A DNA stretch of 15,817 nucleotides, taken from positions 1-15,817 of the forward strand of contig CAKZXL010000501.1 of the NCBI GenBank assembly GCA_937883885.1, given 5' to 3'. Shown here piece by piece: positions 1 to 12,710 of this stretch. This DNA is from an uncultured Aquincola sp. (GTDB lineage Bacteria; Pseudomonadota; Gammaproteobacteria; Burkholderiales; Burkholderiaceae). The notes under the pieces were generated by a model. That model ran no database searches, was not told the DNA's origin, and worked only from the letters and a program-made list of their open reading frames with translations. A program made the position numbers and the translations under genes. Within the stretch, counting starts at the first letter, position 1. Each line of letters starts with the position of its first letter.

Positions 1-917
1 CACTGGCCGCCGTGGCGCCGGTGCTCACGCCTTACCTCACCGACCTGCTGCTGAAGGTGATGATCCTGTCGATCTTCGCGCTCAGCCTGCAGCTCGTCGT
101 CGGCATCACCGGCCTGGTCAGCCTGGGCCATGCGGCCTTCTATGGCATCGGTGCCTATGTCACGGTGCTGGCCTCGGGCGATGGCGGCGGCTCCATCGCC
201 ACGCTGCTGCCGCTGGCCATGGGCGGCGCGGCGGCCTATGCGCTGTTCGTCGGGCTGCTGGGGCTGCGCACCCGCGGCATCTACTTCATCATGGTCACGC
301 TGGCCTTTGCGCAGATGGCCTACTTCGTGTTCCACGACACCGGCATCGGCGGCGGCAGCGACGGCATCTACCTGTACGTGCGGCCGGCGCTGGGCGCCAT
401 CGACCTGGAGGACCGGCGCACGCTGTACTTCGTGGTGCTGGCGGCGCTGGCCGGCACCTACGGGCTGCTGGCGCTGATCCGCCGCTCGCGCTTCGGCGCG
501 GCGCTGGCCGGCATCCGCGTCAATGAGCAGCGCATGCGGGCCGCTGGCTTCAACACTTACCTGTACAAGTTGGCGGCCTTCGTCATCGGCGGTGCGCTGG
601 CCGGGCTGGCGGGCTTTCTGGTGGCTTCGCGCGATGGCGTGGTCAACCCCGAGATGCTGGGCTGGCACACCTCGGGCGACGTGCTGCTGATGATCATCCT
701 GGGCGGGCTGGGCAGCCTGCGGGGCGCGGTGATCGGCGCGGTGGCCTTCACGCTGCTGCGCGAAGTGCTGTCCACCCATGGCCTGGTGGGCCCGCTGGCC
801 GACCACTGGCAGCTCACGCTGGGGCTGGCCATCATCGCTTTCGTGGCGCTGCTGCCCAAGGGCCTGATCGGCCTGATGGACCGGCTGTCGCCGCAATCGA
901 CCCCGAGAGGTGCTTGA
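1..917 (+). CDS. livM: Branched-chain amino acid-type ABC permease LivM (5' end cut by window)
   Basis: Inner-membrane permease of a HAAT-family (branched-chain amino acid or amide-type) importer. It pairs with LivH and carries substrate from a periplasmic binding protein. The frame is open to the left edge; the first in-window start is a GTG at 12, but LivM proteins normally have one more N-terminal hydrophobic segment, so the true start is probably upstream. Counting from the GTG, the family hallmarks are the GLVSLGHAAFYGIGAYV segment (residues 34-50), the GGSDG motif (114-118) and the cytoplasmic coupling region around ALAGIRVNEQRMRAAGF, followed by an AGLAG helix. Several hydrophobic helices alternate with short loops throughout. 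The TGA stop overlaps the next ATG (TGATG), so it is translationally coupled to livG. Substrate cannot be read from sequence: HAAT systems also carry urea, amides and aromatic acids. Confidence 0.93.
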   Translation, partial: LAAVAPVLTPYLTDLLLKVMILSIFALSLQLVVGITGLVSLGHAAFYGIGAYVTVLASGDGGGSIATLLPLAMGGAAAYALFVGLLGLRTRGIYFIMVTLAFAQMAYFVFHDTGIGGGSDGIYLYVRPALGAIDLEDRRTLYFVVLAALAGTYGLLALIRRSRFGAALAGIRVNEQRMRAAGFNTYLYKLAAFVIGGALAGLAGFLVASRDGVVNPEMLGWHTSGDVLLMIILGGLGSLRGAVIGAVAFTLLREVLSTHGLVGPLADHWQLTLGLAIIAFVALLPKGLIGLMDRLSPQSTPRGA

Positions 918-1660
918 TGCAAGCCATGCTGCAGGTGGAAGGGCTGAGCCGCCGCTTCGGCGGGCTGCTGGCCGTGAGCGACGTGGCCCTGGACCTGCAC
1001 GTGGGTCAGGTGCATGCGGTCATCGGCACCAACGGCGCCGGCAAGTCCACGCTCATCAACATGCTGTCGGGCGAGCTGGGTGCCAGCACCGGCCGCATCC
1101 GCTTCGATGGGCAGGACGTCACCGGCTGGTCGCAGCACCGGCGGGCGCGGGCGGGGGTGGGCCGCAGCTACCAGCGCACCACCATCTTTCCGGAGTTCAC
1201 GGTGCGCGAAAACTGCCGCCTGGCCGCGCAGGCCGCCTTTGCGCGGCCTTGGGCGCTGTGGCAGGCGGCGACAGCCTGCGCGCGCAGCACTGCCGCGGCC
1301 CAGGCCGCGCTGGAAGCGGCCGGCCTGGCGCATGAGGCCGATCGCATCGCCGGCACGATGAGCCACGGCGCCAAGCGCCAGCTGGAAGTGGCCATGTGCC
1401 TGGCCACCGCGCCGCGTGTGCTGCTGCTGGACGAGCCGCTGGCCGGCATGGGCGCCGAAGAAACCGACCGCATGCTGGCGCTGCTGCAACGCCTGAAGGC
1501 CACGCATGCGGTGCTGCTGGTGGAGCACGACATGGACGCGGTGTTCCGCATCGCCGACCGCATCACGGTGATGGTCAACGGCTGCGTGATCGCCAGCGGC
1601 GACCCCGAGCACATCCGCCGCGACCCCGAGGTGCAGACGGCCTACCTGGGGGAGCATTGA
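917..1660 (+). CDS. livG: Liv-type ABC transporter ATP-binding protein LivG
   Basis: Cytoplasmic ATPase subunit that powers the LivM-containing importer, as a heterodimer with LivF. The protein is 247 residues from the ATG at 917, which overlaps the livM stop by one base; a TTG three bases earlier and an ATG at 926 are alternatives. Motifs in order: Walker A GTNGAGKST (37-45), Q-loop glutamine in GRSYQRT (about 87), signature MSHGAKR (148-154), Walker B LLLDE (169-173) and switch histidine in LVEHD (204). The signature is slightly divergent but keeps the Ser and the Gly, so the subunit should be active. The C-terminus (EHIRRDPEVQTAYLGEH) is the typical LivG tail. It is the second gene of a livM-livG-livF operon, and livF starts two bases after its stop. 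Confidence 0.95.
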   Translation: MQAMLQVEGLSRRFGGLLAVSDVALDLHVGQVHAVIGTNGAGKSTLINMLSGELGASTGRIRFDGQDVTGWSQHRRARAGVGRSYQRTTIFPEFTVRENCRLAAQAAFARPWALWQAATACARSTAAAQAALEAAGLAHEADRIAGTMSHGAKRQLEVAMCLATAPRVLLLDEPLAGMGAEETDRMLALLQRLKATHAVLLVEHDMDAVFRIADRITVMVNGCVIASGDPEHIRRDPEVQTAYLGEH

Positions 1661-1661
1661 C

Positions 1662-2363
1662 GTGCTGAAGATCGAAAGCCTGAACACCTACTACGGCGAC
1701 AGCCACATCCTGCGCGGCGTGGACGTGCAGGTGCCCGCCGCCACCGCCGTGGGCCTGCTGGGCCGCAACGGCATGGGCAAGACCACGCTCATCCGCTCGC
1801 TGATGGGCTATGTGAAGCCGGCCTCCGGCCGCGTGCTGGTGGACGGCAAGGACGTGACCGGCTGGGCGCCCGAGAAGATGGCGCGGCTGGGCATCGGCTA
1901 CGTGCCTGAAGGGCGGGGCATCTTTCCCAACCTCTCGGTGCGAGAGAACCTGGTGATGGCCGAGCGCCCCGGCCTGGACGGCCGCAGGGCCTGGACCTTC
2001 GAGCGGGTGATGCACACCTTCCCGCGGCTGGCCGAGCGGCTGGGCCACGGCGGCCAGCAGCTGTCGGGCGGCGAGCAGCAGATGCTGTCCATCGGCCGCG
2101 CGCTGATGACCAACCCGCGGCTGATGATCCTGGACGAAGCCACCGAAGGCCTGGCGCCGCTGATCGTGGCCGAGATCTGGCGCGTGATCGGCGAGATCCG
2201 CGCCACCGGCATCGCCACGCTGATCGTCGACCGCGACTACCGCAAGGTGCTGGGCCACACCGAGCAGGCGGTGGTGATGCAAAAGGGCCGCATCGAGCTG
2301 GCCGGCGGCTCGGCCGCGCTGGCGGCCGACACCAGCCGGCTGGGCGAATTTTTGGGCGTGTGA
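1662..2363 (+). CDS. livF: Liv-type ABC transporter ATP-binding protein LivF
   Basis: Second ATPase of the plus-strand HAAT importer, 233 residues, starting at a GTG one base after the livG stop codon. Motifs: Walker A GRNGMGKTT (34-42), the LivF-specific VPEGRGIFPNLSVREN block (81-96), signature LSGGE (134-138) and Walker B LMILDE (154-159) followed by ATEGLAP. The switch-histidine position reads IVDRD; LivF proteins normally lack the His here (E. coli LivF has VEQN), so this is not a defect. It keeps both Walker A and the signature, in sharp contrast to the LivF-like protein encoded immediately downstream on the other strand. It is the last gene of the operon, and only 10 bp separate its stop from that of the convergent operon, leaving no room for a conventional terminator. 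Confidence 0.95.
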   Translation: MLKIESLNTYYGDSHILRGVDVQVPAATAVGLLGRNGMGKTTLIRSLMGYVKPASGRVLVDGKDVTGWAPEKMARLGIGYVPEGRGIFPNLSVRENLVMAERPGLDGRRAWTFERVMHTFPRLAERLGHGGQQLSGGEQQMLSIGRALMTNPRLMILDEATEGLAPLIVAEIWRVIGEIRATGIATLIVDRDYRKVLGHTEQAVVMQKGRIELAGGSAALAADTSRLGEFLGV

Positions 2364-2373
2364 GCGCGGCGCT

Positions 2374-2982
2374 TCAGCCGTCCAGCACCACCACCTGATC
2401 GGCCACCGGCTGCCACCAGAGCGCCTGCGCATCGGCCACCAGCACCGCCAGGCCGTGCTGGCGCAGCTCGCCCAGCCGCTGCACCAGGCGCTGCGCCAGC
2501 GCGGGCGCCAGCGCCTGCGTGGGCTCGTCCAGCAACAGCCAGCGGGGTGAGGCCACCAGGCCTTGCGCCAGCGCCAGCAGCCGGCGCTGCCCGCCGGACA
2601 GCGTGCCCGCCCGCTGCTGCCGGCAGGCCTGCAGTTCAGGCCACCACTGGGCGCTGCGCTGCAGCGCCTGCGACAGTGCAGCGGCCGGCAGGTGGCAGCC
2701 GGCGGCACGCAGGTTGTCCTGCACGCTCAAGCCCGGCAGCACCGGCGGCTGCGCCGGCACCAGCACCAGGCCACGGCGGCGGCGCTGGTCGGGCGGCAGG
2801 CCATCCACCCGTTGCTCGTGCAGCCACAGGCTGCCCTGCTGCAGCGGCTGCAGGCCGGCCAGCGCGGCCAGCAGTTCACCGGTGTCTGGCGTGCGGGTGG
2901 CGGTCAGCAGCACCAGCTGGCCGGGTGGCAGCCGCAGGTTCAACGGCGCGCTGCCGCCGGCGCGCAGGTCGCGGGCCTCCAT
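2374..2982 (-). CDS. LivF-like ABC ATPase with a degenerate Walker A, short C-terminus
   Basis: LivF-type nucleotide-binding subunit of the second Liv operon, 202 residues against about 235 usual. The chosen ATG at 2982 overlaps the upstream gene's TGA by one base; a GTG at 2985 is possible. The signature LSGGQRR (128-134) and Walker B WLLLDEPTQALAP (148-160, Glu153) are intact. The P-loop is gone: where a Walker A such as GRNGAGKST should stand (residues 28-36) it reads ATRTPDTGE, with Thr34 in place of the invariant Lys and all three glycines lost. The switch region reads VLVADAQ, without His, but LivF proteins commonly lack that His. The protein ends right after VVVLDG, missing the usual 25-30 residue tail. 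It probably cannot hydrolyse ATP at its own P-loop but can complete the partner's site with its LSGGQ. A decaying gene is an alternative, though the intact frame and signature argue against it. Confidence 0.88.
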   Translation of the reverse strand: MEARDLRAGGSAPLNLRLPPGQLVLLTATRTPDTGELLAALAGLQPLQQGSLWLHEQRVDGLPPDQRRRRGLVLVPAQPPVLPGLSVQDNLRAAGCHLPAAALSQALQRSAQWWPELQACRQQRAGTLSGGQRRLLALAQGLVASPRWLLLDEPTQALAPALAQRLVQRLGELRQHGLAVLVADAQALWWQPVADQVVVLDG

Positions 2983-3701
2983 CACAGGGTGGCTCCTGCA
3001 CCGGCGCAGGCGGCGCGCACGCGGGCATCGGCCAGCACCTGGGCCGTGGGTCCGTGCGCCAGCAGACGGCCTTGCTGCAGCACCAGCACTTCTTCGCAGC
3101 AGCGCGCCACCAGGCGCAGGTCGTGTTCGACCAGCAGGGTCTGCGTGCCGGTATCGGCATGCACACGTTCCAGCCAGGCCGCCAACGCCGCGCGCTGGTG
3201 GGGCGGCAGGCCGGCGGCCGGTTCGTCCAGCAGCAGCAGCCGGGCACCGCCGGCCAGCGCCCGCGCCCAGGCCACGCGCCGGCGTTCGAAGCGGTCCAGC
3301 CTGCCGCAGGGGGCTTCACGCAGCGGCCACAGATCGGCCCCTTGCAGCGCCTGCTGCAGCGCGGCGGCCTTGTCGGCGCGCGACCCCGGCCGTGCATCCA
3401 GCGCCACGGCCACGTTGTCGGCCACGCTGCGCTCGGGCACCAGCGCGTCGTGCTGGAAGGCGCGGCGCAGCCCCGCCAGCGCGCGCTGGCGAGGGCTCAA
3501 GGGGTGCAGCGGCAGCTGGTCCAGCAGCAGGCGGGTGGCGGGCTGCACCGGCACCAGGCCGCTCAGTGCGTCCAGCAGGCTGCTTTTGCCCGCGCCGTTG
3601 GGCCCGATGAGGCCGACCACCGGCGCGCGCAACTCGGCGGTGACTTCGTCCAGCGCCACCAGGCCGCCAAAGCGCACGCCCAGCCGGTGCAGCGAGATCA
3701 T
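2982..3701 (-). CDS. LivG-like ABC ATPase with a degenerate signature motif
   Basis: LivG-type nucleotide-binding subunit, 239 residues, with the ATG at 3701 overlapping the permease stop (ATGA). It carries a full set of catalytic residues: Walker A GPNGAGKSS (33-41), Q-loop Gln in RRAFQHD (83), Walker B LLLLDEPAAGL (156-166, Glu160) and switch His193 in LVEHD. What is missing is the signature: LivG proteins read roughly LxYGQQRRLEIARAL, whereas residues 135-150 here read LDRFERRRVAWARALA, so the Ser/Gly core that contacts the gamma-phosphate is replaced by Asp-Arg-Phe. In a heterodimer with the LivF-like partner (no P-loop, perfect LSGGQ), its P-loop would face an intact signature while its own lost signature would face the lost P-loop. 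The frame runs on upstream over the permease in a different reading frame; that extension is not coding. Confidence 0.9.
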   Translation of the reverse strand: MISLHRLGVRFGGLVALDEVTAELRAPVVGLIGPNGAGKSSLLDALSGLVPVQPATRLLLDQLPLHPLSPRQRALAGLRRAFQHDALVPERSVADNVAVALDARPGSRADKAAALQQALQGADLWPLREAPCGRLDRFERRRVAWARALAGGARLLLLDEPAAGLPPHQRAALAAWLERVHADTGTQTLLVEHDLRLVARCCEEVLVLQQGRLLAHGPTAQVLADARVRAACAGAGATL

Positions 3702-5659
3702 GGCCGGCCCCGCACCGGCGGGCGCGGGGCGCGCCTGGGCCAACGAAACCGCCAGGCCATGCGTGCCAGCGTTTGCAGTTGCACCACCAGGCCCTGCGGC
3801 GCGGTGGCCAGCGCATGCATCAGGGCCAGGCCGAACAGCAGCAGGGCCAGCTGCGCATCCAGCCCCAGACTGGCCAGTGCGCCGGGCACCACCCGGTGCA
3901 GCACCCCGGCCAGCAGCGGCCCCGCCGCAGCCTGTGGCCCGGCGATCACCGTGGTGGCCAGCAGCACGATGGATTCGCCGGGCGCGAAGGAGCGGGGGTC
4001 CAGCGTGCCCAGCTGCAGCGCCAGCAGGCTGCCGGCCAGCCCGGCGGTGGCCGCGCACCAGGCCAGCGCCTGCAGCCGCCTCAGGTTCACCGGCACTGCA
4101 CAGGCCAGCGCGGCGGCGGGGCTTTCGCGCATCAGGGCCCAGGCCCGACCGGGTGCGCCACGCACCATCGCCCCTTGCAGCGCCAGGCAGGCCCACAGCA
4201 GCAAGGCGGCGCCTCGCAGCAGCGCGGCATCGCCCGCCCACCCCGCGGGCCGCGCCATCGGCACCATGCCGGGGCCGTAGCCGGCCAGGCCGTCGGAGCC
4301 GCCGTTGGGAAACTGCAGCGCGTGGATCACCACGCCGAAGGCGCCCGCCAGCATCAGGCTGGCCAGCGCAAAGCCCAGGCCGCGCAGCCGCAGCAGCGGC
4401 AGGCCCACCAGCGCGCCGGCCAGCGCGGTGCCCAGCGTGGCAACCCCCAGGCACATGCCCACCGGCCAGCCGGTGCCGTGCCACAGGCGCAGGCACAGCC
4501 AGCCGCCCACGCCCATCCACGCCACCTGGGCCAGCTGCACCAGGCCCAGCTGTGCCTGCAGCAAGGCCACGCCGCAGGCTGCCATGGCGTAGATCACGGC
4601 CGCCGTCCATACCTGCAGCCAGTAACCGCCCAGCAGCGCCGGCAGCAGGGCGATGGCCAGCGCCGGCCCCAGCAGGCGGCGCACGGTCGGCCCCGCCGCG
4701 GGCCACGCGACCGACCATCGGCCAGCCGCCGCATCGGCGGCCGGGGCAACGGGCACCTTCGGCAGGGGCCCTGTCAGGGCCCGGCGGCGTGGCCGCCGCC
4801 AGCCGCGCCAGCGCACCGCGGCCAGCGCGCGCGCCACTTCCACCAGCAGCGCCAGTGCAAACGGCACCGCAGCGCGAAACGGGCTGGCCGCGGGCCACTG
4901 GGTGGCCCAGGCTTCGGCCACGCCGATGGCCAGGCCCGCCGCCAGCGTGGCCGGCCAGGCGTGCAGCCGGCCCACCACCGCTGCCGCCAGCGCCGGCACC
5001 ACCAGGAAAGTGAGGGTGCCGGCATCCAGCCGCACCAGGTGGCCCAGCAGCAGGCCGGCGATGCCGCACAGCAGGCCGCTCCAGGCCCAGGCCAGTTGCT
5101 CTGCGCGTTGCACCGGCACCCCCAGCAGCCGCGCATGGGCGCGGTGGTCGGCCAGTGCACGCCAGGCCAGCCCCAGGCGGCTGCAGGCCAGCAGCCAGCC
5201 GGTGCCGCCGGCCGCCAGCACCGCCACGGCCAGCGCCAGCAACCGGCTGCTCGTGAGCCGCAGGCCCGGCCACTGCAGCACCAGCGCATCGGTGGGCAGC
5301 AGCAGCCGGCGCGGCGCGGGTGGCCAGGCCCAGCCCACGGCGCCCAGCAGCGCCAGCGCCAGGCCCAGGGTGCCCAGGGCCTGCAGCACCGGCTCGCGCG
5401 CCGCCAGTCGCGGCGCCACGGCATGGCCGTACAGCAGCGCCACGGCGGTGGCGGCGCCCACCGCCACCGCCGCGGCCGGCAGGCCCACCGGTCCGGGCGC
5501 GGCCAGCTGCCAGGCCAGCAGCGCCGCCAGCGCCCCCAGGGCACCCTGCGCCAGGTTGAGCACGCCGGTGCTGCGGTACAGCAGCAGCAGCGCCACGCCG
5601 GCCAGCGCGTACACCGCGCCCAGGGCCAGGCCCGAGATCCACAGGGCGCCCGCGGGCAT
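3698..5659 (-). CDS. LivH-LivM fusion permease of a HAAT-type ABC importer
   Basis: One 653-residue membrane protein that joins the two permease subunits normally made from separate livH and livM genes. Residues 1-285 are LivH-like: GLALGAVYALAGVALLLLYRSTGVLNLAQGA at the N-terminus and the cytoplasmic coupling segment RALADHRAHARLLGVPVQRAEQLA (167-190), followed by an AGLLLG helix. A basic and Ala/Pro-rich linker spans about 283-325. Residues 326-625 are LivM-like, with GLVQLAQVAWMGVGGWL (372-388), the LivM hallmark NGGSDGL (452-458) and a second coupling segment around ALMRESPAAALACAVPVNLRR (508-528). The C-terminal tail is Arg/Pro-rich and probably cytoplasmic. It starts 12 bp after the binding-protein stop and ends overlapping the LivG-like start by four bases, so all four genes form one operon. 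The fusion would force a LivH/LivM heterodimer. Confidence 0.9.
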   Translation of the reverse strand: MPAGALWISGLALGAVYALAGVALLLLYRSTGVLNLAQGALGALAALLAWQLAAPGPVGLPAAAVAVGAATAVALLYGHAVAPRLAAREPVLQALGTLGLALALLGAVGWAWPPAPRRLLLPTDALVLQWPGLRLTSSRLLALAVAVLAAGGTGWLLACSRLGLAWRALADHRAHARLLGVPVQRAEQLAWAWSGLLCGIAGLLLGHLVRLDAGTLTFLVVPALAAAVVGRLHAWPATLAAGLAIGVAEAWATQWPAASPFRAAVPFALALLVEVARALAAVRWRGWRRPRRRALTGPLPKVPVAPAADAAAGRWSVAWPAAGPTVRRLLGPALAIALLPALLGGYWLQVWTAAVIYAMAACGVALLQAQLGLVQLAQVAWMGVGGWLCLRLWHGTGWPVGMCLGVATLGTALAGALVGLPLLRLRGLGFALASLMLAGAFGVVIHALQFPNGGSDGLAGYGPGMVPMARPAGWAGDAALLRGAALLLWACLALQGAMVRGAPGRAWALMRESPAAALACAVPVNLRRLQALAWCAATAGLAGSLLALQLGTLDPRSFAPGESIVLLATTVIAGPQAAAGPLLAGVLHRVVPGALASLGLDAQLALLLFGLALMHALATAPQGLVVQLQTLARMAWRFRWPRRAPRPPVRGRP

Positions 5660-5671
5660 GGCCGGCCCCGC

Positions 5672-6955
5672 TCAGCGCCGGGCGATGCCCTGGCGCCGCT
5701 CCGAGGCCTGGATGGGCGCCAGGTAGTCCGACTCGGTGTCGAAGCAGCCGGCCACCGTCTCGTAGCCGCTGCCGGTGTAGCGCAGCATGATGCCGGCGTG
5801 GTTGGGCATGTGGCGGTCGCCATCGCCGAAGTACCAGGGCCGGCACAGCAGGTCGCTGCGGTGGTCGCGCACCGCGCGCAGCGCCCGCGTCACGGCCCGG
5901 CGGCTGTCCAGGTCGCGTGGGTTCATCTGCAGCAGCGCGGCGGTGAAGATGTCGGCCGCCACGAAGCCCGCCTGCGAGAAGGTGTCGCGCCGCTGGGTGG
6001 CCAGCGCGTCGCTGCTGCCCCAGCCTTGCATCACCGCGCGCCAGCGGCGGGCGTCGGGGCCGTCGCCGTCCAGCCGGGTGAGTTCGGCATGCACGTACAG
6101 CCGGTTCGCCCAGTAGCGGCCCAGCGCCGCGGGCACCTGGTCGTCGTACAGCGGCGTGGGCGCGATCCAGCGGTAGCGCTCGCCCAGGTCCTGCTCCTGC
6201 GCGGCCTGCAGCAGCGGCAGCGCCAGGCCGGCGGGCAGGTTCACCAGCAGCGTGTCGGCGCCGGTGGCGCGCGCCTGCAGCAGCACCGACGTGAAGTCGG
6301 CGCTGGCCGCGTCGAACAGCACCGCCTGGCTGCGCAGGCCGCGGCCGGCCAGCCAGCGCTGCACCGCGTCGCAGGTCCAGTGGCCGCCGCCCGGGGTGTT
6401 GACGCTGATGCACGCCACCGAACGTGTACCCAGGCTGCGCACCGCCCACTGCACCGCGCCCAGGTTGCTGGGCAGCGGCCCGCCGTTGGTGGAGACGATG
6501 TTGCGCGACTCGAAACACTCCTGCACCGCGCAGGCCGCGGCGATGACCACCACGCCCTGCTGCTCGTACAGGCGGGCGTTGACGCGCATTTCCACCAGGC
6601 TGCCGTTGCCCACCAGCGCCAGCACCTGGCGGTCCGTCACCAGGCGGGCGGCGGCCTGGGCGGCACGCTCGGCATTCCACTGGTCGTCTTCGATCAGGTA
6701 CTGCACCGGCCGGCCATGGATGCCGCCATGCTGGTTGACGCAGCGGAAGTACGCGCGCGCCGCACCGGCCGACGAGCTGAAGTCGTCTGGCCCGGTCTTG
6801 CCCACGATGGCCCCCACCCGCAGCGGCGCACCCTGCGCGGGCGGGCCGCCGCTGGCGCGGCACGGTGGCGGCGCCGCCATCGCGGCCACCGGCCCCGCGG
6901 CCAGGGCAAACAGCAGCACGAACGTGCGGTGGCGGGCGCGGGCGGTAAAGGCCAT
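5672..6955 (-). CDS. Periplasmic ligand-binding protein, HAAT/Peripla_BP_6 type
   Basis: Exported substrate-binding component, 427 residues, first gene of the second Liv operon. The N-terminus has a Sec signal (basic MAFTARARHR, hydrophobic TFVLLFALAAGPVAA, likely cleavage after AMA near residue 27). The mature part opens with the family pattern: LRVGAIVGKTGPDD (45-58), YFRCVNQHGGIHGRPVQYLIEDD (69-91), an AAARLVTDRQVLALVG segment (101-116), then alternating alpha/beta lobes. No lipobox is seen, so a soluble periplasmic protein is expected. Eight cysteines remain in the predicted mature chain (32, 72, 142, 147, 182, 195, 371, 404), many for this family and compatible with disulphides. The ATG at 6955 has a GGGGGA Shine-Dalgarno five bases upstream. 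The ligand cannot be predicted. It lies back to back with the giant sensor kinase across a 133-bp control region. Confidence 0.9.
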   Translation of the reverse strand: MAFTARARHRTFVLLFALAAGPVAAMAAPPPCRASGGPPAQGAPLRVGAIVGKTGPDDFSSSAGAARAYFRCVNQHGGIHGRPVQYLIEDDQWNAERAAQAAARLVTDRQVLALVGNGSLVEMRVNARLYEQQGVVVIAAACAVQECFESRNIVSTNGGPLPSNLGAVQWAVRSLGTRSVACISVNTPGGGHWTCDAVQRWLAGRGLRSQAVLFDAASADFTSVLLQARATGADTLLVNLPAGLALPLLQAAQEQDLGERYRWIAPTPLYDDQVPAALGRYWANRLYVHAELTRLDGDGPDARRWRAVMQGWGSSDALATQRRDTFSQAGFVAADIFTAALLQMNPRDLDSRRAVTRALRAVRDHRSDLLCRPWYFGDGDRHMPNHAGIMLRYTGSGYETVAGCFDTESDYLAPIQASERRQGIARR

Positions 6956-7088: not shown

Positions 7089-10000
7089 ATGAGCACCGAC
7101 TACACCGCTGCCGAAACGCTCCACGACAGCCTGTCGACCCAGGTGTTTCGGGGCAGCGCGCCCGCCGTGGCCAGCCAGCTGGTGCTGCTCAAGGTGCCGC
7201 ACCCCGACTCCGCCACGCCCGAGGCGGCCACCCGCCTGCGCGACGAACATGCGCTGATGCTGGGCCTGCAGGGCCCGCACGTGCCGCAGCCGCTGGCGGT
7301 GCTGGACGACGGCGGCCAGGCGGTGCAGGTGCTGCAGGACGTGGACGGCCGCCCGCTGTCCGAGCTGATCTGCAGCCCGCAACCCTGTCCGCTGGCGCAG
7401 TTCTTCACCGTCGCCGAAAGCCTGGCCGAGGCGCTGGACGACCTGCACCGCCAGAAGGTGATCCACGGCGGCCTGCACCCGGGCCACGTGCTGGTGGGCG
7501 ACCACGGCCAGGTCTGGCTGCTCGACTTCTCGCGCGCGGTGCGCCTGCAGCGCGACTACCCCGACGACTTGGCCACCGAGCTGCCCGCCTGGCTGCTGCC
7601 TTATGCCTCGCCCGAGCAGACGGGCCGCATGAACCGCACCGTGGACAGCCGCAGCGACCTCTACGGCGCGGGCGTGATGCTCTACCAGCTGCTCACCGGC
7701 CGGTTGCCCTTCCAGGCGGCCGATGCGCTGGAGTGGGTGCACTGCCACCTGGCGCGCGAGCCCCGCTCGCCCGACGCGGTGGTGCCCGGCGTGCCGCATG
7801 CGCTGGCGCAGCTGGTGATGAAGCTGCTGGCCAAGCTGCCCGAGCGCCGCTACCAGACCGCCAACGGCCTGCGCGCCGACCTGGCCCTGTGCCGGCAGGC
7901 CTGGGAGCAGGGCCGCATCGACGACACGCTGGTGCTGGGCCGGGCCGATGTGTCCGACCGCTTCGAGCTGCCCGAAGTGCTGGTGGGCCGCGACGACGAG
8001 CGCACGGCGCTGCTGTCAGCCTTCCACCGCGTGGCCGCGGGCGGCCCGCGCCAGGTGGTGCTGGTCACCGGCGAGGCGGGCGTGGGCAAGAGCTCGCTGG
8101 TGTCCGAGCTGCGCTCGGCCGTGGCGTTGGAGGGCGGCAGCTTCTGCGTGGCCAAGGCCGACCCCTACGTGCGCGGCATTCCGCATGCGGTGTTCGGCAT
8201 GGCGCTGGGGCCGCTGGTGCAGCGCATGCTCACCGGCAGTGCCGCCGAACTCACGCAGTGGCGCCAGCGGCTGGAACGGGCCCTGGGCGCCGATGCGGCG
8301 GCGGTGGCCGAGGTCGTGCCGGCCCTGCGCTGGGTGATGGGCGCGGTGCCCGAACCCCCCGGCCTGCCGGCCGAGCAGGCCGCCCGCCGCCTGCAGGACG
8401 CGTTGCAGCGCCTGGTGGGCGTGCTGGCCACGGCCGAGCATCCGCTGGTGCTGTTCTTCGACGACCTGCACTGGCTGGACGTCGGCAGCCTGGGCCTGCT
8501 GGCCGCCTTGTGCGACGCGCCCCAGTCGCGCCATGTGCTGGTGGTGGGCGCCAGCCGGCCCATCGGGCCGCAGGGCATTGCGTCGGCGGTGGTGGTGGAG
8601 GCTGCCTTTGCCCGCCGCGGCGTGCCGGTGACGGTGCTGCCGCTGCGCTCGCTCGAGCGGGGCGACGTGGTGCGCATCGTGGCCGGTGCGCTGCACCGGC
8701 ACGACGGGCTGGTGCAGTCGCTGGGCGCACTGGTGCATGCGCGCACCGATGGCAATCCGCAGTTCGTCGGCCAGTTCCTGACGGCGCTGCACCAGGACGG
8801 CCTGCTGCAGTTCGACGCCCAGGCCGGGCACTGGCATGGCGAGCTGGCGCGCATCACCCAGCGCGGATTCACCGACAACGTGGTGGACCTGATGCTGGCG
8901 CGCCTGCGCCGCCTGCCCGAGGCCAGCCGCCAGGCGCTGGCTTTGGCGGCCTTGCTGGGCAGCCCCTTCCGCCTCAACGTGCTGGCCCGTGTGGCCGGCC
9001 TGACCGAAGGCCAGGCCGAGGCCGCGCTGTGGCCCGCGCTGCAGGCCGGCCTGGTGGCCCGCGGCACGCCGCAGTGGCGCTTCCTGCACGACCGCGCGCA
9101 GGAAGCCGCGCAGGAGCTGACGCCTGCCGACGCACGGCCGGCGCTGCATGTGCGCATCGCGCGCTCACTGCGCGCCGACGCCGCGGCCGAAGGCCTGGTG
9201 GAAGGCGACGACCGGCTCTATGCCATCGTCACGCAGTTCAACCATGGGCTGGCGGCCCTCACCGACGAGGCCGAGCGGCTGTCGGTGGCGGCGCTCAACC
9301 TGCAGGCCGGCGCCCGCGCCTATGGCGCCACCGCCTACGTGGCCGCCATCGCCTACCTGCGCGCCGGTCTGGCGCTGCTGCCGGCCGACCCCTGGCCCAG
9401 CCAGCCCGCGCTGGCCAGCGCGCTGCTGCGCCTGCTGGCGCGCTGCGAGGCACAGCGCCAGTGCTTCGACGAGGCCGAACGCCTGGCCCGCCGGGTGCTG
9501 GCGCAGCGGCGCCCGCCGGCCGAGCGGCTGGACGCGCACCAGGTGCTGATCGAGGTGTGCGTGGCCCGCGGCCACTACCAGCAGGCCGAGCAGGTGGCCA
9601 TCGCCAGCCTGGCCGAGCTGGGCCTGCCCTTGCCCGCCCAGCCGCAGGCGGCCCAGGTGCGGCAGGCCTGGCAGGCCTTGCAGGCGCGGCTGGGCGACCG
9701 GCCCGTGGTCAGCCTGGCCGAGCTGCCGCAGATGATGCAGCCCGAGGCGCTGCTGCTGCTGCGCGGCATCGACGGTGCGCTGCGGCTGCTGGTGTTCCTC
9801 GACAAGCAGCTGCTGGCGCTGCTGCTCATCCGCCTGGTGCACCTGCTGCTGGACCATGGCCAGGCCCGCGCCAGTGCGCCGGGGCTGGCCTACTTCGGCT
9901 GGGTGCTGGCCGGCCACCTCGGCGAGCCCGCGGCGGGCGAGGCCTTCGGCTACCTTGCGCAGACCATGGCCGAGGCCGCCCACGGCGGCAACGATCTGGG

Positions 10001-12710
10001 GCGCATCGCCTTCTGGCGCGGGCTCATCGCCATGTGGTGCCGGCCCTGGCAGGAGGTGGTGCGCCGCCTGCAGCAGGCGCTGGACAGCGCCCGCGCCGAG
10101 GGCGACCTGGGCACCGCCTGCTTTGCCTGCGGGCACCTGGTGACCACGCTGCTGTTCGCCGGCCGGCCGGTGGACGAGGTGGTGGCGCGGGCCGAAGAGC
10201 TGCTGCCCCAGGTGCAGCGCGCCCGCTTCCCCGACCTGGCCGAAGACCTGATCTCGCTGCGCGACGCCGCCTGCCGGCTGCGCGGCGACCCGATCCCCGC
10301 CACGCCGCCGGTGCTGGTGCCCGACACCGAGCTGGCGCCGGCCGCCGCCGGCGAACTGCGTGCGGCCTTCGTGGCGCTGCGGCGCCTGATGGTGGACTGC
10401 GTGCTGGGCGACCTGCCTTCGGCCCGTCTGCAGGCCCGGCGGGCCGATGCCTCGCGGGCGGCCGTCAAGGGCACGCTGCTGGAGCACCTGCACGTGGTGT
10501 ACGGCGCGCTGGCCCTGGCCGGCGACCAGGACACCGCCACCCCCGCCGACAGCGCCGCGCTCGACGCGGCAGTGCAGCAGGTCGAGCACTGGGCCCGCCA
10601 CAACCCCGATGCCTTCGGCCCCTGGCGCAGCCTGCTGCAGGCCGAGCGCCAGCGCCTGGGCGGCGACGCGCTGCAGGCGCTGGCCGGCTTCGAGGCGGCG
10701 GCCCGGCAGGCCGCGGCGCTGGGCCTGCCGCATGTGCAGGCCTTGTCGATGGAGCGCGCCGCGCGCGTCGCCGGCCAGCTGCAGCTGCCCACGGCGGCCG
10801 AAGCCTGCCGGCAGGCTGCCATCGCCGCCTATGAACGCTGGGGTGCCTGGGCCAAGCTGCGGCGGCTGGATGCCGCGGTGATCGACCGCATCAGCCGCGG
10901 GCAGGCCCAGGCCGCCGCGTTGCCGCACCGCCTGCCGCTGCCCGCCGAACCCGAGGCGCGGCCGATGCCGCTGGACACGCTGGCATTGGTCAAGGCCACG
11001 CAGGCACTGTCCAGCCGCATCACGCGCGACGAACTGCTGGGCACGCTGATGCGCCTGGTGATCGAGCAGGCCGGTGCGCAGTCGGGTGCGCTGCTGCTGG
11101 TGGACGCGCGCGAGCGCCAGTCGCCCCTGCTGCTGGCGGCCACCGCGCAGGTTCGGCTGCACGACATCGACGTGCAGCTGCGGCCCGACGACAGCGCCCG
11201 CCAGCGGCTGCCGCACCGCATGCTGGCCTTCGTGCAGCGCAGCCGCGAAACCGTGCTGCTGGGCGACACCCACCCGCCGCACACCTTCGAGCGTGATGCC
11301 TACCTGCTGGCGCACCAGCCGGCCTCGGCCCTGTGCCTGCCCATCCAGCACCGCGCCACGCTCACCGGCGTGCTGTACCTGGAGCACCGCAGCGTGCCGC
11401 GCCTGTTCACGCGTGAGCGGCTGGGCGTGCTCAACCAGCTGGCGGTGCAGGCCGCCATCTCGCTGGAAAACGCCTGGGTGGTCGAGCAGCTGCGCGGCCT
11501 CAATGCCGAGCTGGAGCAGCGCGTGGCCCAGCGCACCGCCGCGCTGCAGACCGCGATGGAAGCGGCCGATGCCGCCAACCGCGCCAAGACGGCCTTTCTG
11601 GCCAACATGAGCCATGAGATCCGCACGCCGATGAACGCGGTGCTGGGCATGGCCTACCTGGCGCTGCACAGCGGGCTGAACGAGCGGCAGCGCAACTACG
11701 TGCAGAAGATCCAGACCTCGGCCACGCTGCTGCTGTCGCTGGTCGACGACATCCTCGATTTCTCAAAGGTGGAGGCCGGTCGCGTGGAGATCGAACAAAC
11801 CGTGTTTGCACTGGCCGACGTGCTGGGCCAGGCCCAGGACATCGTCGGCGTGCGTGCGGCGCAAAAGGGCCTGGGGCTGAGCTTTCCGATGGCCGGGCCG
11901 GTGCCCACACACCTGGTGGGCGACCCGCTGCGGCTGGGGCAGGTGCTCATCAACCTGTGCAACAACGCCGTCAAGTTCACCGAGCAGGGCGAGGTGAGCT
12001 GCAGCATCCAGGCGCTGCCCACCCCCGAGCCGGCCATGGTGCAGCTGCGCTTCAGCGTGCGCGACACCGGCATCGGCATGACGCCCGAGCAGCGCGCGCT
12101 GCTGTTCAAGCCCTTCAGCCAGGCCGATGGTTCCACCTCGCGCCGCTATGGCGGCACCGGGCTGGGGCTGGCCATCTCGCAGCGGCTGGTGCAGCTGATG
12201 GGCGGGCAGATCGAGGTGGACAGCCAGCCCGGCGTGGGCAGCTGCTTCTGGTTCGAGCTGCGCCTGGGCGTGGCCGAAGCGGTGCCCACCGCCACGGACC
12301 ACGAGCTGCCGCAGGAGCCTGCATCGCTGCTGGGGCTGCGCGTGCTGCTGGTGGAAGACAACGAGATCAACCAGGAGCTGGCGCTGGAGCTGCTGCGCAA
12401 TGCCGGCATCGAGCCCACCGTGGCCGCCAACGGCCAGGAAGCGCTGCGCTGCCTGGAACAACACGCCTTCGACGGCGTGCTGATGGATTGCCAGATGCCG
12501 GTGATGGATGGCTTCGAGGCCACGCGCCTGCTGCGCGCCGATGCCCGCTGGCGCCGGCTGCCGGTGATCGCGATGACCGCCAGCGCCCGCGCCATCGACC
12601 GTGCCGAGGCACTGGCCGCCGGCATGGACGACCACATCGCCAAGCCGATCGACGTGGAGGTGCTCTACAGCACCATCGGCCGCTGGATGAGGCCTGTCAA
12701 ACCGGCTTGA
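7089..12710 (+). CDS. Giant hybrid histidine kinase: Ser/Thr pseudokinase, STAND ATPase, GAF, HisKA, HATPase, receiver
   Basis: 1873-residue soluble multi-domain signalling protein with no membrane helix. Residues 1-270 are Ser/Thr kinase-like: Lys35 (LVLLK), LLDFS (Asp146) and the SPEQTGRMNR block (174-183) typical of this family. The catalytic HRD loop is HGG (126-128) and the Asn after it is His133, so it is probably a pseudokinase. Residues 295-600 are a STAND/AAA ATPase, opening VLVGRDDE, with Walker A GEAGVGKSS (328-336) and Walker B FFDDLHW (456-462). About 730-1290 is a long Ala/Leu-rich helical, TPR-like stretch. A GAF domain spans about 1310-1462, followed by a coiled coil. HisKA carries His1509 (MSHEIRTP). 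The HATPase shows N-box NN 1625-1626, DTGIGM from 1659 and GGTGLGLA from 1688. The receiver has Glu1756/Asp1757, phospho-acceptor Asp1800, Thr1830 and Lys1852. All phosphorelay residues are present. The same order is known in cyanobacterial and myxobacterial multikinases and in fungal Mak2/Chk1-type hybrid kinases. The output partner is unknown. Confidence 0.93.
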   Translation: MSTDYTAAETLHDSLSTQVFRGSAPAVASQLVLLKVPHPDSATPEAATRLRDEHALMLGLQGPHVPQPLAVLDDGGQAVQVLQDVDGRPLSELICSPQPCPLAQFFTVAESLAEALDDLHRQKVIHGGLHPGHVLVGDHGQVWLLDFSRAVRLQRDYPDDLATELPAWLLPYASPEQTGRMNRTVDSRSDLYGAGVMLYQLLTGRLPFQAADALEWVHCHLAREPRSPDAVVPGVPHALAQLVMKLLAKLPERRYQTANGLRADLALCRQAWEQGRIDDTLVLGRADVSDRFELPEVLVGRDDERTALLSAFHRVAAGGPRQVVLVTGEAGVGKSSLVSELRSAVALEGGSFCVAKADPYVRGIPHAVFGMALGPLVQRMLTGSAAELTQWRQRLERALGADAAAVAEVVPALRWVMGAVPEPPGLPAEQAARRLQDALQRLVGVLATAEHPLVLFFDDLHWLDVGSLGLLAALCDAPQSRHVLVVGASRPIGPQGIASAVVVEAAFARRGVPVTVLPLRSLERGDVVRIVAGALHRHDGLVQSLGALVHARTDGNPQFVGQFLTALHQDGLLQFDAQAGHWHGELARITQRGFTDNVVDLMLARLRRLPEASRQALALAALLGSPFRLNVLARVAGLTEGQAEAALWPALQAGLVARGTPQWRFLHDRAQEAAQELTPADARPALHVRIARSLRADAAAEGLVEGDDRLYAIVTQFNHGLAALTDEAERLSVAALNLQAGARAYGATAYVAAIAYLRAGLALLPADPWPSQPALASALLRLLARCEAQRQCFDEAERLARRVLAQRRPPAERLDAHQVLIEVCVARGHYQQAEQVAIASLAELGLPLPAQPQAAQVRQAWQALQARLGDRPVVSLAELPQMMQPEALLLLRGIDGALRLLVFLDKQLLALLLIRLVHLLLDHGQARASAPGLAYFGWVLAGHLGEPAAGEAFGYLAQTMAEAAHGGNDLGRIAFWRGLIAMWCRPWQEVVRRLQQALDSARAEGDLGTACFACGHLVTTLLFAGRPVDEVVARAEELLPQVQRARFPDLAEDLISLRDAACRLRGDPIPATPPVLVPDTELAPAAAGELRAAFVALRRLMVDCVLGDLPSARLQARRADASRAAVKGTLLEHLHVVYGALALAGDQDTATPADSAALDAAVQQVEHWARHNPDAFGPWRSLLQAERQRLGGDALQALAGFEAAARQAAALGLPHVQALSMERAARVAGQLQLPTAAEACRQAAIAAYERWGAWAKLRRLDAAVIDRISRGQAQAAALPHRLPLPAEPEARPMPLDTLALVKATQALSSRITRDELLGTLMRLVIEQAGAQSGALLLVDARERQSPLLLAATAQVRLHDIDVQLRPDDSARQRLPHRMLAFVQRSRETVLLGDTHPPHTFERDAYLLAHQPASALCLPIQHRATLTGVLYLEHRSVPRLFTRERLGVLNQLAVQAAISLENAWVVEQLRGLNAELEQRVAQRTAALQTAMEAADAANRAKTAFLANMSHEIRTPMNAVLGMAYLALHSGLNERQRNYVQKIQTSATLLLSLVDDILDFSKVEAGRVEIEQTVFALADVLGQAQDIVGVRAAQKGLGLSFPMAGPVPTHLVGDPLRLGQVLINLCNNAVKFTEQGEVSCSIQALPTPEPAMVQLRFSVRDTGIGMTPEQRALLFKPFSQADGSTSRRYGGTGLGLAISQRLVQLMGGQIEVDSQPGVGSCFWFELRLGVAEAVPTATDHELPQEPASLLGLRVLLVEDNEINQELALELLRNAGIEPTVAANGQEALRCLEQHAFDGVLMDCQMPVMDGFEATRLLRADARWRRLPVIAMTASARAIDRAEALAAGMDDHIAKPIDVEVLYSTIGRWMRPVKPA

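What the first reader, a model, noticed from the sequence alone, without database searches (positions are those of the whole stretch)
2374..3701. Complementary decay of two Liv-type ATPases: one live and one dead composite ATP site
The LivF-like protein has lost its P-loop (ATRTPDTGE at 28-36, Thr34 for Lys) but keeps a perfect LSGGQ. The LivG-like partner keeps Walker A, Q-loop, Walker B and switch His but has LDRFE where the signature belongs. ABC dimers pair each P-loop with the other subunit's signature, so both losses fall in the same site and the other site is complete. Random decay would not be expected to sort this way; coevolution to an asymmetric ATPase would. Degenerate sites are established for heterodimeric exporters (TAP1/2, TM287/288, BmrCD) and CFTR, but are not usual for branched-chain amino acid importers. 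A slow or gated transporter, or a transporter turned sensor, would fit.
Basis: partly seen in the sequence, partly recalled or inferred. Interest (0 to 1): 0.8.

Follow-up and report, generated by a model that had tools for sequence, protein, structure and literature searches.

The report
Importer motor with one ATP site
A bacterial nutrient importer appears to have let one of its two ATP-burning sites decay step by step while keeping the other intact, an extreme form of a lopsidedness seen in every ordinary pair of such ATPases sampled here.

Summary
LivF-like 2374-2985(-) has no P-loop (ATRTPDTGE for GxNGxGK[ST]) but keeps LSGGQ. LivG-like 2982-3701(-) keeps Walker A, Q-loop, Walker B and switch His but has LDRFE for its signature. 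Both losses fall in one composite site.

Relatives show a stepwise history, not joint coevolution. The second signature Gly of LivG is gone in 18 of 18 relatives read (old loss). The LivF P-loop is gone in 3 of 19 (window, P0001, P0002), one supported subclade; window and P0002's contig also carry a fused LivH-LivM. P0002 further lost the Walker B Glu. Within the clade, 14 catalytic columns per site took 24 changes in the dead site and 0 in the live site. Omega on the window branch is about 0.09 for both ATPases (dS saturated).

'Not usual for branched-chain importers' needs correcting: all 45 ordinary LivG/LivF pairs sampled are already asymmetric in this same site.

Best reading: a HAAT-type importer driven by one catalytic site, LivF reduced to a signature donor. 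RbsA/NupO are a published sequence precedent. No heterodimer model or biochemistry was possible.

The parts
2374..2985 (-). LivF-like ABC ATPase, P-loop lost, C-terminus truncated (203 aa)
   Evidence: ORF; ABC_tran match starts at profile position 27; alignment; AF2 model
2875..2901 (-). P-loop remnant ATRTPDTGE (Thr in the Lys column)
   Evidence: sequence; alignment; profile comparison
2587..2601 (-). intact LSGGQ signature of LivF (half of the live site)
   Evidence: sequence; S, G, G and Q/E columns unchanged in 17 of 17 clade LivFs
2524..2529 (-). LivF Walker B Asp-Glu codons (intact here; Glu is Gln in relative P0002)
2982..3701 (-). LivG-like ABC ATPase with degenerate signature
   Evidence: ORF; Pfam ABC_tran; best NCBIfam match LivG, below cut-off; AF2 model
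3582..3605 (-). intact Walker A GPNGAGKS of LivG (half of the live site)
   Evidence: sequence; the six scored columns unchanged (S/T as one) in 15 of 15 clade LivGs
3285..3299 (-). LDRFE in place of the LSGGQ-type signature of LivG
   Evidence: sequence; alignment; second Gly absent in 15 of 15 aligned clade LivGs and in G595, G1143, G1144
3222..3227 (-). LivG Walker B Asp-Glu codons, intact
3123..3125 (-). LivG switch His193 codon, intact
   Evidence: invariant column
3698..5659 (-). fused LivH-LivM permease (653 aa)
   Evidence: Pfam BPD_transp_2, two stretches; separate overlapping genes in G002; fused relatives P0241, P0242
5672..6955 (-). periplasmic substrate-binding protein of the same operon
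   Evidence: Pfam Peripla_BP_6; relatives in the operons of all 10 clade genomes of the family
7089..12710 (+). divergently transcribed giant Ser/Thr kinase-AAA-GAF-histidine kinase-receiver protein; next to the transporter also in G002
   Evidence: Pfam; 73% identity to the G002 neighbour
12..2363 (+). separate ordinary LivM-LivG-LivF set converging on this operon (not part of it)
   Evidence: similar LivGs lie elsewhere in G001 and G002 (L045, L044)

Best explanation
This is a HAAT-type (LivKHMGF-like) ABC importer whose LivG-LivF heterodimer has a single catalytic ATP site: P-loop, Q-loop, Walker B and switch His of LivG against LSGGQ of LivF. The mirror site decayed in order: (0) a background handicap in ordinary pairs, with LivF lacking the switch His and mostly carrying Glu in the Q-loop, and LivG lacking the first signature Gly; (1) LivG lost the second signature Gly in the clade ancestor; (2) LivF lost the switch Gln and its C-terminal tail; (3) in the lineage of window and P0002, LivF lost the P-loop, and LivH and LivM are one chain there; (4) afterwards the window type lost the Q-loop Glu and P0002 the Walker B Glu. 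Shown: the motifs, their order on the trees, purifying selection. Inferred: LivF is a pseudo-ATPase that donates the signature and couples to the permease; the second site is probably nucleotide-free; each cycle uses one ATP; the machine still imports.
For: Motif alignment of 17 LivF and 15 LivG clade members. Trees: LivG clade 100/97, LivF clade 100/99, P-loop-less trio 100/100. Parsimony 24 versus 0 changes. LSGGQ kept and 16 of 21 signature-helix positions shared between window and P0002, against 8 of 16 in the P-loop segment. Omega on the window branch 0.086 (LivF) and 0.097 (LivG), both rejecting 1. Confident ABC folds. Asymmetry in the same site in 45 of 45 ordinary pairs. No homodimer could form a complete site: LivG has no signature, LivF no P-loop. 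Published sequence precedent in type II importers RbsA and NupO (PMC11466899, passages).
Against: No heterodimer model, nucleotide-binding or transport data. dS is saturated between window and G002, so omegas are rough; a four-class fit in the same call puts omega above 5 on the short stem of window+G002 for LivF and LivG but not for the binding protein, which is either saturation noise or a burst of change. The P-loop-less state rests on one lineage, known from the window, one 96% and one 64% relative. LivF changed faster than LivG on the stems (1.11 and 0.81 against 0.47 and 0.35), which fits loss of constraint as well as a new role. The dehydrogenase neighbours seen in distant relatives were not seen beside the window or G002 operons, so nutrient import is not certain.
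Confidence: 0.66

Rival explanations
1. The transporter has become a substrate sensor or slow gate: one ATP site gives a long-lived state, and the binding protein and permease report to the divergently transcribed giant kinase rather than feed the cell.
For: The kinase is adjacent and divergent in both window and G002. G002 also has an MCP, a CheX domain and a CheY-like gene on the other side. Distant relatives instead sit beside GMC oxidoreductase, aldehyde dehydrogenase, SDR, MoaF or AraC genes.
Against: Adjacency is known in two genomes only. I did not test the kinase for membrane or transporter contacts; its Pfam domains name none. The binding protein is well conserved (80% identity to G002).
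Confidence: 0.13
2. LivF is dispensable and decaying: the permease runs with ATPases borrowed from another HAAT system, for example the convergent LivG-LivF at 914-2363(+).
For: An ordinary LivG/LivF pair lies next door in the window. LivF is the faster-changing ATPase.
Against: LivF on the window branch has omega 0.086 with 1 rejected. The signature is intact in 17 of 17 aligned LivFs. In the G002 stretch read (L051) no plus-strand-type LivM or second LivG/LivF pair was matched; G002's similar LivG lies on another contig (L044).
Confidence: 0.12
3. Recent pseudogenisation or a sequencing artefact: the P-loop and signature changes are decay in a dying operon.
For: Two motif losses and a truncated LivF C-terminus.
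Against: P-loop loss is shared by P0001 (96% identity) and P0002 (64%). Signature loss is shared by every clade LivG read. Frames are open, LivG and LivF overlap by 4 bases. Omega is near 0.09.
Confidence: 0.03
4. The LivF P-loop region was remodelled rather than lost and still binds nucleotide or another ligand, so two ligands are held per dimer as in other degenerate-site transporters.
For: The segment is predicted as a loop followed by the usual helix (helix 35-42; pLDDT 82 over residues 31-40), and 8 of 16 positions are shared by window and P0002.
Against: All six scored Walker A columns are changed in the window copy, and window (ATRTPDTG) and P0002 (GGRRGGTG) differ from each other.
Confidence: 0.06

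Closest known systems
HAAT importers (LivKHMGF, TC 3.A.1.4; name and number recalled)
   Same: Peripla_BP_6 binding protein, two BPD_transp_2 permease units, one LivG-like and one LivF-like ATPase in one operon; the same composite site is the weaker one in 45 of 45 ordinary pairs.
   Different: LivG second signature Gly lost, LivF P-loop lost, LivF tail lost, LivH-LivM fused; no NCBIfam equivalog cut-off is reached.
RbsA and NupO fused ATPases of Bacillus subtilis type II importers
   Same: One degenerate site: at least one deviant signature and a second Walker A without Lys, NupO also without the Walker B acids (PMC11466899, passages seen).
   Different: There the two ATPase domains are one polypeptide; here they are two proteins and the permease halves are fused.
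Degenerate-site ABC transporters reviewed for exporters (incl. ABCG5/G8)
   Same: One consensus and one degenerate site; in ABCG5/G8 a changed signature goes with Walker A Lys to Arg (PMC7756269, passages seen).
   Different: Exporters; the review suggests ATP may stay in the degenerate site as a permanent glue and says that site has not diverged further among orthologues. Here Walker A is erased and the site keeps changing.
E. coli DppBCDF
   Same: A heteromeric importer in which nucleotide analogue was seen on one ATPase only, DppF (PMC12136057, part of abstract and passages seen).
   Different: Peptide importer of another permease type; the passages seen do not report erased motifs like these.

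Membership tests
HAAT (branched-chain amino acid type) importer | Peripla_BP_6 binding protein in the operon | tested here: met
   E 2.3e-52, 179.2 bits over cut-off 31.7
HAAT (branched-chain amino acid type) importer | two BPD_transp_2 permease units | tested here: met
   one 653-aa chain with two matched stretches
HAAT (branched-chain amino acid type) importer | LivG-like and LivF-like ATPases | tested here: met
   best NCBIfam matches are LivG (119.6 bits) for one and UrtE/LivF (103.3/78.0 bits) for the other
HAAT (branched-chain amino acid type) importer | LivG C-terminal BCA_ABC_TP_C segment (PF12399) | tested here: not met
   not reported for the window LivG at E 0.001; listed for P0122 but not for P0123-P0125
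E. coli-type LivF/LivG or urea UrtDE equivalogs | score over the curated NCBIfam cut-off | tested here: not met
   LivG 119.6 of 362; UrtD 111.5 of 304.1; LivF 78 of 441; UrtE 103.3 of 285.8
Asymmetric (degenerate-site) ABC ATPase | one complete composite site | tested here: met
   LivG Walker A, Q, DE, His and LivF LSGGQ intact here and unchanged across the clade rows
Asymmetric (degenerate-site) ABC ATPase | other site lacks residues needed for catalysis | tested here: met
   P-loop, Q-loop, switch and opposing signature all altered
Asymmetric (degenerate-site) ABC ATPase | degenerate site still binds ATP (intact Walker A) | tested here: not met
   by sequence only: Walker A erased in 3 of 19 LivFs including the window; binding itself not measured
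Asymmetric (degenerate-site) ABC ATPase | hydrolysis at one site only, measured | not testable with these tools
   needs biochemistry
Asymmetric (degenerate-site) ABC ATPase | LivG and LivF form a head-to-tail heterodimer | not testable with these tools
   only single chains could be predicted

The most novel reading that the evidence does not exclude
HAAT importers as a family run on one catalytic site, LivG's P-loop with LivF's signature, and tolerate loss of the mirror site. This clade is the end point: LivF has become a nucleotide-free signature donor, so one ATP per cycle suffices for a binding-protein-dependent importer, and ordinary LivF proteins are already on that path (no switch His in 45 of 45 pairs).
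Probability: 0.35. Interest if true: 0.72.

Novelty: new variant of a known kind. Interest (0 to 1): 0.52.

Why it matters
Whether ABC importers need two ATPs per cycle is a long-running question (own knowledge). This clade gives a natural series of intermediates in one importer family: weak mirror site, no signature Gly, no switch residue, no P-loop, no catalytic Glu, with the live site untouched in the rows aligned. It lets 'one ATP is enough' be tested in a natural importer rather than a mutant. It also points to an asymmetry in ordinary branched-chain importers that the listings of my full-text searches did not show described (listed 12 of 12, 15 of 19, 12 of 35, 5 of 5, 8 of 136 and 8 of 298 papers; open-licence PMC papers only).

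Tried and rejected
Rejected: joint coevolution of the two losses (the trees put signature loss first); pseudogene; the idea that losing the LivG signature by itself brings P-loop loss (three other LivG types lack the second Gly and keep LivF P-loops; 14 of 16 paired clade systems keep them).

Led nowhere: genome-contig scan with the permease (29 stretches matched a pattern, none a relative). Solved structures with the fused permease or the plus-strand LivM (no match at E 0.001); the binding protein gave only weak matches. Pairwise dN/dS between window and G002 is unusable as a number for LivF and LivG because dS saturates. I therefore wrote a branch model on ten loci with a topology fixed by hand (G292 left out); some branch lengths run to their bounds, its four-class fit gives odd stem omegas above 5 for LivF and LivG, and it is not a published program. 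The pair sample was first read on one strand only and redone: 4 of 50 loci gave no pair (L104, L040, L048, L049) and L031, the G002 clade member, was set aside, leaving 45. The 30 phylum loci are the best-scoring hits to an E. coli-type LivF model, not a random draw. The broad sets lean towards the query: of the 120 hits listed in each, 114 LivF and 115 LivG were used; those left out are the clade's own members. In some searches only the three best candidates a genome were scored.

Full report
What is there. On the minus strand the window carries one operon: a Peripla_BP_6 binding protein (5672-6955), a single 653-aa LivH-LivM permease (3698-5659), a LivG-like ATPase (2982-3701) and a LivF-like ATPase (2374-2985), the last three overlapping by four bases each. 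LivG: GPNGAGKS, Gln83, Asp159-Glu160 and His193 intact, LDRFE for the signature. LivF: LSGGQ and LLLLDEP intact, ATRTPDTGE where the P-loop should be. Two more losses in LivF belong to the list: the Q-loop residue is Ala and the switch position is Ala. The profile comparison of LivF with LivG confirms which columns correspond. ABC dimers pair each P-loop with the other subunit's signature (established; also stated in PMC7756269, passages seen). So the altered items, LivF P-loop, Q-loop and switch plus LivG signature, lie in one site, and the complete set lies in the other.

Relatives. Searching 399 genomes of the same family with the permease gave 14 with a match at E <= 1e-35. Ten of these hold the same binding protein-LivH-LivM-LivG-LivF operon; four (G302, G236, G189, G329) are more distant Liv sets, with no binding-protein match in the stretch read, and served as outgroups. 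The permease found one more system in 399 genomes of the order and two in 398 of the phylum at E <= 1e-45. Protein searches added P0001-P0006 (LivF) and P0122-P0125 (LivG). I pair P0002 with P0122 and permease P0242, P0004 with P0124, and P0006 with P0125 because they share a longest-contig length (9412, 4564, 9325); that is inference. P0005 and P0123 are near-copies of the G002 proteins. The window's own assembly is not held.

Order of the losses. In the alignment every one of the 15 clade LivGs lacks the second signature Gly: LDRFE (window), LGLFD, LGPFQ, LSPFP, LGPFH, LNLFQ/E/R, IDLFQ and LNTYE. The three later systems read LSTEE, LDGFS and LDGFT (two of them keep the first Gly; not put on the tree). 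That is 18 of 18. The four outgroup LivGs have LPYGx. The LivF P-loop is intact in 16 of 19 LivFs and lost in the window, P0001 (TTRTPDTGE) and P0002 (GGRRGGTG); P0002 also reads LLLLDQP. Counted as paired systems, the Gly is lost in 16 of 16 and the P-loop in 2 of 16; no LivF was found for G595, whose contig ends just after LivG. Trees support a LivG clade (15 rows, 100/97), a LivF clade (17 rows, 100/99) and the P-loop-less trio (100/100). So the signature went first and the P-loop later, once. The window permease and P0242 (73% identity) are both single 653-aa chains, while G002 has separate overlapping livH and livM. P-loop loss and fusion therefore sit in the same part of the tree; their order is unknown, and permeases of the other P-loop-intact close relatives (P0003, P0004, P0006) were not seen. 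Other fused permeases of 39-46% identity exist (P0243-P0256); their ATPases were not seen.

Is it selection? With 14 catalytic columns per site and trees built without those columns (checked), parsimony gives 24 changes in the dead site and 0 in the live site, against 685 changes over 200 other LivF columns and 663 over 220 other LivG columns. Eight of the 24 are the one P-loop erasure and twelve the LivG signature after its Gly was gone, so independent losses are fewer: LivG signature (on the stem, outside the 24), LivF switch, LivF P-loop, LivF Q-loop (window and P0001), P0002 Walker B. A branch model on ten DNA loci gives omega 0.086 (LivF), 0.097 (LivG) and 0.121 (binding protein) on the window branch, with omega=1 rejected (p 2e-6, 6e-4, 7e-6). 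Synonymous change is saturated, so the values are rough, and a four-class fit in the same call puts omega above 5 on the short stem of window and G002 for both ATPases but 0.05 for the binding protein; I read that as noise or a burst of change, and cannot tell which. In G215/G292/G104, whose LivG signature is already LNLFQ, pairwise omega is 0.020-0.027 for LivG and 0.064-0.099 for LivF. Against a purely adaptive reading, LivF changed faster than LivG on the two stems (1.11 and 0.81 against 0.47 and 0.35 changes per column; trio stem 0.73 against 0.36 with motif columns left out), as expected when half of its duties lapse.

The family background. I extracted adjacent LivG-LivF pairs from 30 loci of a phylum-wide LivF search and 20 LivG loci of G001 and G002. 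Four gave no pair and one is the clade member, leaving 45. In all 45 the LivF Q-loop residue is Glu and the LivF switch residue is not His (Gln 41, Lys 2, Arg 2); LivG has Gln and His there; LivF has [LM]SGG[EQ] and the P-loop Lys. The first signature Gly is absent from LivG in 45 of 45, the second present in 40 of 45. The larger, query-biased sets mostly agree (LivF switch Gln in 112 of 114 and His in none; LivG switch His in 114 of 115; LivG first Gly in 1 of 115), but the LivF Q-loop residue is Gln in 30 of 114 and the LivG second Gly is present in 102 of 115. So the oddities of ordinary pairs sit in the very site that decayed here. Three further LivG types in G001/G002 have lost the second Gly (LTAFD, LSVQE, ITQEE), again with intact LivF P-loops. 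What is unusual in the window is the last step, erasure of the LivF P-loop: 0 of 45 ordinary pairs. In the broad set one LivF (P0072) has Thr for Lys and one (P0096) lacks the region.

How it most likely works. Only a LivG-LivF heterodimer can make a complete site: LivG alone has no signature, LivF alone no P-loop. ATP held between LivG's Walker A and LivF's LSGGQ would close the dimer and be hydrolysed there. LivF serves as signature donor and permease contact, and the mirror site probably holds no nucleotide. The fused permease would fix the left-right asymmetry of the membrane part. Motifs, order and selection are shown; nucleotide state, stoichiometry and transport are inferred. Monomer models are confident ABC folds; the LivF model's best matches include LptB and a Thermotoga ABC ATPase (1ji0). 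No heterodimer could be modelled.

What it might carry, and the sensor idea. I scanned one to three neighbouring genes, chosen by eye from their first residues, in 7 of the 9 distant family loci. Six have a GMC oxidoreductase, aldehyde dehydrogenase or short-chain dehydrogenase, and the seventh has MoaF and an AraC-type regulator. That suggests an alcohol, aldehyde or amine-derived substrate (inference). The window and G002 instead have a giant Ser/Thr kinase-AAA-GAF-histidine kinase-receiver protein transcribed divergently (73% identity), and G002 also has an MCP, a CheX domain and a CheY-like gene on the other side. A change of role is possible but untested.

Comparison with what is known. 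By Pfam and NCBIfam this is a HAAT-type importer, though no equivalog cut-off is reached. Degenerate sites are known in exporters (PMC7756269, passages). Among type II importers, RbsA and NupO of B. subtilis were reported with a deviant signature and a second Walker A lacking Lys (PMC11466899, passages). E. coli DppBCDF was seen with nucleotide on one ATPase only (PMC12136057, part of abstract and passages). In the passages I saw, PMC6703430 mentions LivF/G as homologues of LptB. The search listings (several show only part of the hits) named no paper describing a degenerate site in LivFG importers; subscription papers and preprints are not held. The system is a new variant of a known kind.

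Verdict. Observation confirmed; interpretation partly supported. A specialist would find the stepwise series and the asymmetry of ordinary pairs useful, but sequence precedents exist and the central biochemical claim is untested. Interest 0.52.

Noticed in passing
window 7089-12710 (+) and L051 11668-17655 (+): A 1873-aa kinase with Pkinase, AAA_16, GAF, HisKA, HATPase and receiver domains is divergent from the binding-protein gene in both the window and G002 (73% identity).
   Followed up: partly
window 12-2363 (+): A second, ordinary LivM-LivG-LivF set converges on the operon. Its LivG signature stretch MSHGAKRQLEVAMC matches a locus elsewhere in G001 (L045) and, with one difference, in G002 (L044). 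Its LivF switch segment reads DRD rather than EQN.
   Followed up: partly
L051 1519-7303: In G002 the transporter's other neighbours are chemotaxis genes: dCache-HAMP-MCP, CheX domain, CheY-like receiver.
   Followed up: partly
L036, L038, L043, L046, L047: Three other LivG types in the two genomes of the nearest genus have lost the second signature Gly (LSVQE, LTAFD, ITQEE) while their LivF P-loops are intact: recurrent loss on the same side.
   Followed up: partly
L052, L063, L066-L070: Distant relatives of the operon sit beside GMC oxidoreductase, aldehyde dehydrogenase, SDR, MoaF or AraC-type genes, hinting at an alcohol, aldehyde or amine-derived substrate.
   Followed up: partly
P0072 (protein hit): A LivF-like protein outside the clade has Thr for the Walker A Lys (GANGAGTST), another possible P-loop loss.
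   Followed up: no
P0243-P0256 (protein hits): Other fused LivH-LivM permeases (39-46% identity) exist, mostly without an organism name, one labelled Nonomuraea; their ATPases were not seen.
   Followed up: no
stem of window and G002 (codon model): The four-class codon model gives omega above 5 on the stem of window and G002 for LivF and LivG but 0.05 for the binding protein; with saturated branches it is unclear whether this is real.
   Followed up: no
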